NCBI GenBank assembly: GCA_946183145.1
Contig: CAMGZM010000005.1
Span: forward strand, 62,001 to 126,000
Length of the DNA: 64,000 bases
Direction of reading: 5' to 3'
Origin: an uncultured Fretibacterium sp.
Lineage (GTDB): Bacteria > Synergistota > Synergistia > Synergistales > Aminobacteriaceae
Notes under the pieces: generated by a model
What the model saw: the letters and a program-made list of their open reading frames with translations, nothing else
The model's database searches: none
Told to the model about the DNA's origin: nothing
Part shown: piece by piece, positions 10,869-11,792 of the stretch
Numbering within the stretch: position 1 is the stretch's first letter
Layout: each line of letters begins with the position of its first letter
Made by a program: the position numbers and the translations under genes

Positions 10869-11400
10869 GTCAACACTTTCACGGATATTATCACGTCTCA
10901 TGAATTGCGCTGTGATTGACGCGGACAAAATAGCCGCAAAAATCTGGACTCGTGATGACGTGAAGAATATTTTTGTCTCACGATGGGGCAATGATATTCT
11001 TGACGCTGACGGAAATATCATCAAGGGAGAAATCTCACAACGGATTTTCACGGACAATGAAGAGCATAAATTTTGCGACTCAATCATTCACCCTCTTGTG
11101 ATGGAAGAGATCCGCACTCTCACAGAAAATATTGATGCCGTTGCTGAGATTCCGTTGTTGCCTGAAGCTGGTCGGCCTGAATGGATTATGCGCGTAATCT
11201 ATACTGAGGCTGATTTTTCCCTCAGGGCTGAACGTTGCAGAGTCTCGCGGGGCTGGAGCTATGACGAATTAATGAGGCGTGAGAAATTCTTGCTCCCAAA
11301 AAGTGAAAGGCTTGCGGTTTGCGATTACGTTATACGCACTGAAGGCAGCCTGTCAGATTTACGCGCTCAGGCTGTGAAGTTTTTATCCAAAGACTGCTAG
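10828..11400 (+). CDS. coaE: Dephospho-CoA kinase
   Basis: Starting at ATG 10828 gives MAVTAVTGEIGSGKST, the P-loop at the extreme N-terminus as in CoaE, and 190 residues, the family length. The frame is open upstream to 10729, but only inside the helicase gene. DADKIAAKIW matches the conserved DAD motif that binds dephospho-CoA, and the C-terminus carries the CDYVIRTEGSLSDLR block. It catalyses the last step of CoA synthesis. A GGGGCGG ribosome-binding site is seen. The 41-nt overlap with the helicase gene is unusually long for this window. Confidence 0.93.
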   Translation: MAVTAVTGEIGSGKSTLSRILSRLMNCAVIDADKIAAKIWTRDDVKNIFVSRWGNDILDADGNIIKGEISQRIFTDNEEHKFCDSIIHPLVMEEIRTLTENIDAVAEIPLLPEAGRPEWIMRVIYTEADFSLRAERCRVSRGWSYDELMRREKFLLPKSERLAVCDYVIRTEGSLSDLRAQAVKFLSKDC

Positions 11401-11431
11401 AAAGCCCCTAGCTTTAAGTTAAGTTAATTTT

Positions 11432-11440
11432 TGCTATAAT
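11432..11440 (+). promoter_or_regulatory. Extended -10 promoter box upstream of the structured RNA
   Basis: TGCTATAAT is a perfect extended -10. The AT-rich stretch before it has only a poor -35 (around CTTTAA). It lies about 7 nt upstream of the first conserved-looking block of the RNA element at 11447. It could drive both the RNA and pepF. Confidence 0.6.
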
Positions 11441-11446
11441 CTTTTA

Positions 11447-11640
11447 TGCGTAACGGCAAATGAGACTGCAAAGTCGGAAAAACCATCAAGGGCAGGCCAA
11501 CGTGTGGAGGACGTAATTTAAAGACCTTGCGTATCTGTGAAGCATCGAGCCAAGGAAGCCAGGTTGGAGTTGCTGTTAGAAGCATAGTGAGCGAGCACCG
11601 GGTGAAAAGGGCGGCAGCTGTGCAATGATTGAGGCATTAA
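11447..11640 (+). ncRNA. Structured RNA resembling an IS200/IS605-associated HEARO/omega RNA
   Basis: This 190-nt stretch has no ORF but is dense in short stems. Examples are GACT-GCAA-AGTC near 11465, GC-rich blocks such as GGGCAGGCC, and an inverted ATGATT/AATCAT pair at 11625-11644. It sits right after a strong extended -10 box and 110 nt before a typical IS200/IS605 right end. The combination of left structured RNA and right-end hairpin matches HEARO (IscB omega-RNA) elements in general layout. The RNA family is inferred from layout and remembered motif style, not from a covariance search. It does not show the conserved cores of RNase P RNA, tmRNA or SRP RNA. Confidence 0.5.
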
Positions 11641-11779
11641 TCATAAATATTATAGAAAATAAGCAGTAAAAAAATGGTTGGGGCATCAGCCATCGGAGGA
11701 GAACTCGTAAGACCTGTTTTTGCAGGCAAGGTTTGTTGATACCAGAATCGTCCGCCTTGAGGCGTGGGGAGTATGTCAA
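11447..11779 (+). mobile_element. ORF-less IS200/IS605-like element (left structured RNA plus right-end hairpin)
   Basis: The right end is the clearest part. CGCC-TTGA-GGCG (11753-11764) is followed by TGGGGAGTATGTCAA (11765-11779), the form of IS200/IS605/TnpB-IscB right ends, which finish in a TCAA cleavage tetranucleotide. The 5' arm of the extended hairpin is imperfect (CGTCCGCC against GGCGTGGGG), which suggests decay. Two more small stems precede it (11675-11680 with 11687-11692, and CCTG/CAGG at 11713-11726). No transposase, TnpB or IscB frame exists between the ends, so it is non-autonomous. The right end abuts the ribosome-binding site of pepF. The left boundary is uncertain by about 20 nt. 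This element accounts for the 392-bp stretch between coaE and pepF. Confidence 0.6.
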
Positions 11780-11792
11780 AGGAGATTGAAGC

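What the first reader, a model, noticed from the sequence alone, without database searches (positions are those of the whole stretch)
11432..11792. Orphan IS200/IS605-like element with structured RNA and no transposase, placed in the pepF leader
Directly seen: a perfect extended -10 box, about 190 nt of compact GC-rich stems without an ORF, then a classic hairpin plus TGGGGAGTATGTCAA right end finishing in TCAA, 13 nt from the pepF start. Known: HEARO/IscB omega RNAs and TnpB reRNAs live in IS200/IS605-type elements, and ORF-less copies exist. Inference: the nuclease gene has been lost or never carried, so the RNA may be a remnant, a trans-acting guide RNA for a nuclease elsewhere, or a domesticated leader that controls pepF. 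The 5' arm of the right-end hairpin is degenerate, which favours age.
Basis: partly seen in the sequence, partly recalled or inferred. Interest (0 to 1): 0.75.

Follow-up and report, generated by a model that had tools for sequence, protein, structure and literature searches.

The report
Gene-less transposon encoding a guide RNA
A 393-base jumping element with no genes of its own sits just before the pepF gene; it carries a promoter and the guide-RNA scaffold of the TnpB RNA-guided nuclease, and it belongs to a family of guide-only elements spread through this group of rumen bacteria that probably borrow their proteins from other elements.

Summary
Bases 11387-11779 (393 bp) are an ORF-less IS200/IS605-family element. 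Relatives have a gapless empty site there (TTTTTAC|AGGAG between coaE and pepF), and insertion replaced the end of coaE. The left end has decayed (24-nt deletion of the hairpin arm; TTAC now TTAT), so the copy is probably stuck. No HEARO or other Rfam family fits. The part read as a 'right end' (11674-11779) is a complete TnpB reRNA scaffold. The same fold overlaps the 3' end of tnpB in tnpA-tnpB elements of this genus and of Campylobacter, and covaries strongly in tnpB-less copies. The 'about 190 nt of stems' is an extra 5' domain of unknown origin, seen in five genomes of this genus, always upstream of the scaffold. Many scaffold copies in the genus lack tnpB; they carry a promoter plus no, a short or a long 5' domain. 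The short one covaries. Best reading: promoter-driven, guide-only elements whose RNA programs TnpB made elsewhere (an apparently intact TnpB exists in this genome). Expression and trans action are inferred, not shown. New variant of a known kind (IS605 PATE/MITE plus TnpB guide RNA).

The parts
11387..11779 (+). whole non-autonomous IS200/IS605-family element, 393 bp
   Evidence: gapless empty site in relatives when 11386 is joined to 11780; full-length copies at other loci
11380..11386 (+). target flank TTTTTAT; ancestral TTTTTAC judged from relatives and from TTAC at other copies
11387..11416 (+). left-end remnant; the 3' arm of its hairpin is deleted (about 24 nt) relative to L007 and L008
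   Evidence: alignment A1; match to the left ends of L013 and L146
11386..11400 (+). new end of coaE (codons TCC AAA GAC TGC and stop TAG) supplied by the insertion
11432..11440 (+). extended -10 box TGCTATAAT, kept in long-type copies L007, L008, L033 (not in L040)
11447..11645 (+). long (type C) 5' RNA domain, origin unknown
   Evidence: model R2: 6 places in 5 of 183 genomes of the order
11464..11475 (+). hairpin GACU-GCAA-AGUC; GAUU/AGUC in L007 and L008, GAUAC/GUAUC in L033, GGUA/UGCC in L040
   Evidence: read from the sequences
11674..11739 (+). remnant of the last tnpB codons, MVGASAIGGELVRPVFAGKVC*
   Evidence: homologous tnpB ends in L013 and L014
11674..11779 (+). TnpB reRNA scaffold with helices 11674-11680/11687-11693, 11701-11705/11730-11734, 11713-11717/11722-11726 and the right-end hairpin 11750-11756/11761-11769
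   Evidence: covariation; model R1 125 bits
11780..11795 (+). predicted 16-nt guide AGGAGATTGAAGCATG (pepF ribosome-binding site and start codon)
   Evidence: inference from the published reRNA layout (PMC8612924)
11793..13589 (+). pepF, oligoendopeptidase F
   Evidence: TIGR00181, 618 bits

Best explanation
The feature is a non-autonomous IS200/IS605 (IS608-like, TTAC-target) element that lost tnpA and tnpB but kept, under its own extended -10 promoter, a guide-RNA gene: a 5' domain of about 200 nt followed by the complete TnpB reRNA scaffold, with the guide read from the flanking DNA beyond the right end. It is one of a class of guide-only elements in this genus. Proposed mechanism: TnpA made elsewhere moves the element as single-stranded DNA. 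Its RNA binds TnpB made elsewhere and directs cleavage of the re-formed empty site (TTAC plus guide), so that repair from a sister copy restores the insertion. Shown: mobility, boundaries, scaffold identity, multi-copy tnpB-less families, RNA-level constraint. Inferred: transcription, TnpB binding in trans, cleavage. The window copy is probably immobile now, but its RNA part is intact.
For: Empty site and non-orthologous copies. Scaffold covariation in 18 tnpB-less copies: 95.5% of cells paired, 14 pairs changed on both sides against 6.4 in shuffles; also within type B alone, helices outside the right-end hairpin, 10 pairs against 4.0. The model from tnpB-less copies scores tnpB-linked scaffolds, Campylobacter included, at 113-118 bits. 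Up to 71 of 96 scaffold places in the genus have no adjacent TnpB Zn-ribbon. In G029 the -10 box lies 5-6 nt before the scaffold in six copies. The short 5' hairpin of tnpB-less copies covaries in 7 of 10 pairs. TnpB of the same family is present in the genome: 18 Zn-ribbon matches, one 410-codon frame.
Against: No expression data. Passive mobilisation of ends could explain copy number. Four genomes with tnpB-less copies (G002, G007, G016, G026) show no strong TnpB match of the right type (incomplete MAGs). The intact TnpB here has an enlarged scaffold of its own (59 bits). The TnpA match in this genome is truncated. -10 matches in many type B copies are no better than shuffled sequence. The 71 of 96 count is an upper estimate.
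Confidence: 0.6

Rival explanations
1. Passive deletion derivative (PATE/MITE): TnpA acts in trans on the ends, and the reRNA scaffold is carried along only because it overlaps the right end. The RNA has no function.
For: Such ends-only IS605 elements, including one with the last 58 nt of tnpB plus the right end, are described (PMC7290912). The window left end is decayed. Some tnpB-less copies are plain deletions (L181, L182, L190).
Against: Helices not needed for transposition covary within tnpB-less type B; a 5' hairpin not recognised in tnpB covaries; the -10 box sits at the scaffold boundary in type A.
Confidence: 0.3
2. Domesticated leader: the element's promoter and RNA now drive or regulate pepF, whose ribosome-binding site lies 1 nt after the element.
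For: The promoter points at pepF, and the insertion uncoupled pepF from coaE, whose stop overlapped the pepF start in relatives.
Against: Present in one genome only at this site; no sign of selection at the site can be tested. The same RNA occurs at unrelated loci. Read-through into pepF may still be a side effect.
Confidence: 0.05
3. Guide decoy: the tnpB-less RNA mainly titrates or inhibits TnpB of other elements instead of guiding it.
For: Part of a tnpB mRNA inhibits TnpB cleavage in vitro (PMC10278001); a long 5' domain could act so.
Against: The scaffold and the right-end/guide junction are intact, and copies with no 5' domain exist.
Confidence: 0.05

Closest known systems
TnpB reRNA / omega RNA of IS200/IS605 elements (ISDra2 and related TnpBs)
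   Same: Scaffold of about 106 nt overlapping the tnpB 3' end and the right end, then a guide from the flank (PMC8612924, PMC10278001); the same fold is found beside tnpB in this genus and in Campylobacter.
   Different: No tnpB in cis; own promoter and an extra 5' domain; trans use not shown.
PATE (palindrome-associated transposable element) of IS605, Halanaerobium hydrogeniformans
   Same: Left end, a short tnpB 3' remnant and the right end without intact genes (PMC7290912).
   Different: That report gives one ends-only copy and no RNA or promoter; here there are many copies with promoter-scaffold layouts and covarying RNA domains.
Stand-alone omega RNA loci of IscB (HEARO-type), from memory of Altae-Tran 2021
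   Same: Guide RNA gene without its nuclease gene beside it, presumed to act in trans.
   Different: Different nuclease and RNA family; guide at the 3' end here; no Rfam HEARO match. Paper not held.
IStron (group I intron plus IS605)
   Same: IS605-type element with a large structured RNA near its left end.
   Different: No group I intron match in Rfam.

Membership tests
IS200/IS605-family element (non-autonomous) | subterminal imperfect hairpins at both ends | tested here: met
   right-end hairpin 11750-11769; left-end hairpin in L007 and L008, 3' arm deleted in the window copy
IS200/IS605-family element (non-autonomous) | insertion next to a fixed short motif without target duplication | tested here: met
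   gapless empty site; TTAC before the left end in other copies
IS200/IS605-family element (non-autonomous) | ends shared with an element that encodes tnpA/tnpB | tested here: met
   L013, G009 C62, G005 C29, Campylobacter L146
TnpB reRNA | scaffold homologous to one overlapping the 3' end of a tnpB gene | tested here: met
TnpB reRNA | scaffold ends at the right end and the guide is the flank | tested here: met
   right end exactly at 11779; guide use itself not tested
TnpB reRNA | bound by TnpB and directs cleavage | not testable with these tools
   needs expression and binding assays
HEARO / IscB omega RNA | match to Rfam HEARO | tested here: not met
HEARO / IscB omega RNA | IscB (RRXRR) in the genome | tested here: inconclusive
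   no hit, but the positive control also failed
IStron | group I intron core | tested here: not met
   no Rfam match up to E 10 in the element

The most novel reading that the evidence does not exclude
Guide-only elements form a lasting class of non-coding selfish DNA that borrows two proteins in trans, TnpA to move and TnpB to enforce its own retention, with RNA domains (short and long 5' types) evolved for stand-alone guide expression rather than left over from tnpB.
Probability: 0.45. Interest if true: 0.8.

Novelty: new variant of a known kind. Interest (0 to 1): 0.6.

Why it matters
If the RNA works in trans, a DNA element of 170-400 bp with no gene could drive its own retention through somebody else's RNA-guided nuclease. 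One TnpB would then be programmed by many guides scattered over the genome, a layout that resembles a dispersed CRISPR array. It would also give a natural set of compact, promoter-ready TnpB guide scaffolds with tolerated 5' extensions, and a direct test of whether TnpB acts in trans between elements.

Tried and rejected
(1) HEARO, group I intron and all Rfam families: nothing. (2) Long-range pairing of GACCUUGC (5' domain) with GCAAGGUUU (scaffold), suggested by the minimum-energy fold: rejected, because it competes with helix 2, which covaries. (3) The long 5' domain as decayed tnpB or tnpA: only a 24-nt match to one tnpA (1 of 300 shuffles as good; none with a second tnpA; protein level 70 of 500), no profile hit. 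(4) The short 5' hairpin inside the long domain: model R3 does not find it. R3 gave a weak hit inside tnpB coding sequence of L014 (18.5 bits) with poor pairing, taken as chance but not excluded as an origin. (5) A small conserved ORF in the long domain: frames shift between copies. (6) Phage collection: no match. (7) A wrongly registered structure was counted first for the short hairpin and replaced.

Full report
What is there. The window lies in a rumen-type Synergistaceae genome; the nearest named relatives are Synergistaceae and Fretibacterium MAGs. Between coaE (dephospho-CoA kinase) and pepF (oligoendopeptidase F) sits an insertion whose exact limits come from relatives. Joining window base 11386 to 11780 gives a gapless alignment to L047, L072, L048 and L049. 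In L047 the coaE stop overlaps the pepF start (ATGA); here the element supplies SKDC and a TAG stop, and the pepF ribosome-binding site survives directly after the element. The target was TTTTTAC, now TTTTTAT.

It is mobile. Copies of 87-90% identity lie at unrelated loci of other species: L007 (G002) and L008 (G035:C5). Four more (L033, L044, L045, L046) stop at contig ends, as repeats do in assemblies. Most intact left ends follow TTAC and carry a full hairpin. The window copy lacks about 24 nt of that hairpin, so I infer that it no longer moves. The only TnpA match in this genome is a truncated remnant.

What the right part is. Bases 11674-11739 still read as the last codons of tnpB. The same stretch overlaps the 3' end of tnpB in L013 and L014 and in an annotated tnpA-tnpB element of Campylobacter fetus. 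Eighteen copies without an adjacent tnpB were aligned. A four-helix fold is kept in 95.5% of cells, with 14 pairs changed on both sides (6.4 in shuffles) and far better than any slid register. A covariance model from these copies (R1) scores tnpB-linked copies at 113-118 bits, so the RNA fold is the same. By literature, the TnpB reRNA/omega RNA is just this: a scaffold (106 nt in one ortholog) ending at the right end, followed by a guide read from the flank (PMC8612924; PMC10278001). The guide here would be AGGAGATTGAAGCATG.

How common it is without tnpB. R1 matches 25 of 43 genomes of the genus. Of 96 places checked, 71 have no TnpB Zn-ribbon beside them. That number is an upper estimate: 7 are at contig edges, some (L181, L182, L190) keep other tnpB pieces, and the TnpB list was cut at its weak end. 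The loci read by eye fall into three layouts between promoter and scaffold. Type A has nothing between: G029 copies L012/L178, L179, L180, L186, L187 and L212, with TGCTATAAT or TGCTATACT 5-6 nt before the scaffold, plus L194. Type B has a short hairpin: many near-identical copies in G036, plus G002, G010, G040 and two in this genome (L002, L003). Type C has a domain of about 200 nt: the window, L007, L008, L033, L040, and a decayed L208. A type B hairpin also appears in another family of the order (L246).

Why I think the RNA is selected rather than carried along. The type B hairpin is not recognised in tnpB, apart from one weak, poorly paired hit, and has compensatory changes in 7 of 10 pairs. 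Within type B alone, scaffold helices outside the right-end hairpin covary as well (10 of 17 pairs changed on both sides against 4.0 in shuffles). If type B arose once, these changes came after tnpB was lost; a single origin is inferred, not tested. The promoter evidence is mixed: exact extended -10 boxes in most type A and type C copies, weaker matches in many type B copies, and matches that weak are common in shuffled sequence.

The long 5' domain. It occurs in 5 of 183 genomes of the order, only in this genus, always upstream of the scaffold. One hairpin (11464-11475) covaries by eye; the rest of the predicted fold has weak support (2 of 48 pairs changed on both sides). No origin was found. 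Its role, such as protecting the 5' end or tuning TnpB loading, is open.

Mechanism. In the published model TnpB cuts the empty donor joint so that repair restores the element (PMC8612924). I propose that the guide-only elements use that cycle with TnpB from other loci. This genome has 18 TnpB Zn-ribbon matches, one of them a 410-codon frame of the right type, although its own scaffold is enlarged (59 bits). No copy of the empty site exists elsewhere in the genome, as expected if it is a target. The literature library held no description of promoter-driven TnpB guide-only elements, but several key papers are not held, so the novelty claim is cautious.

Noticed in passing
L004, L005, L006 (tnpB copies of this genome), scaffold region: The reRNA scaffolds of these tnpB copies carry extra palindromic inserts in three hairpins (153-173 nt instead of 112), and similar lengths occur in G030 tnpB copies.
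   Followed up: partly
L146 and Campylobacter/Helicobacter plasmid hits H1-H20: The same scaffold and right end occur in tnpA-tnpB elements on plasmids of Campylobacter fetus, C. concisus and Helicobacter suis, a different phylum, at 74-78% DNA identity.
   Followed up: partly
G060 (another genus of the family), L230-L239: About 20 scaffold copies, the ones read being truncated tnpB 3' ends, several with short repeats such as CGGGATATCAATCGGGATATCAAT just before the scaffold.
   Followed up: no
L040 (G028:C88), just after the element: A second right-end-like sequence (GGCGGAGTATGTCAA) follows 44 nt downstream of the first, which suggests a nested or tandem insertion.
   Followed up: no
L014 2123-2156 and L028 2122-2155, minus strand: Weak matches (18.5 and 12.1 bits) of the short 5' hairpin model inside tnpB coding sequence; may hint at the origin of the type B hairpin, or be chance.
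   Followed up: no
G000 C19 12.7-13.7 kb (L263): A decayed tnpA-tnpB element, tnpA truncated at its 5' end, is the only TnpA match in this genome.
   Followed up: partly
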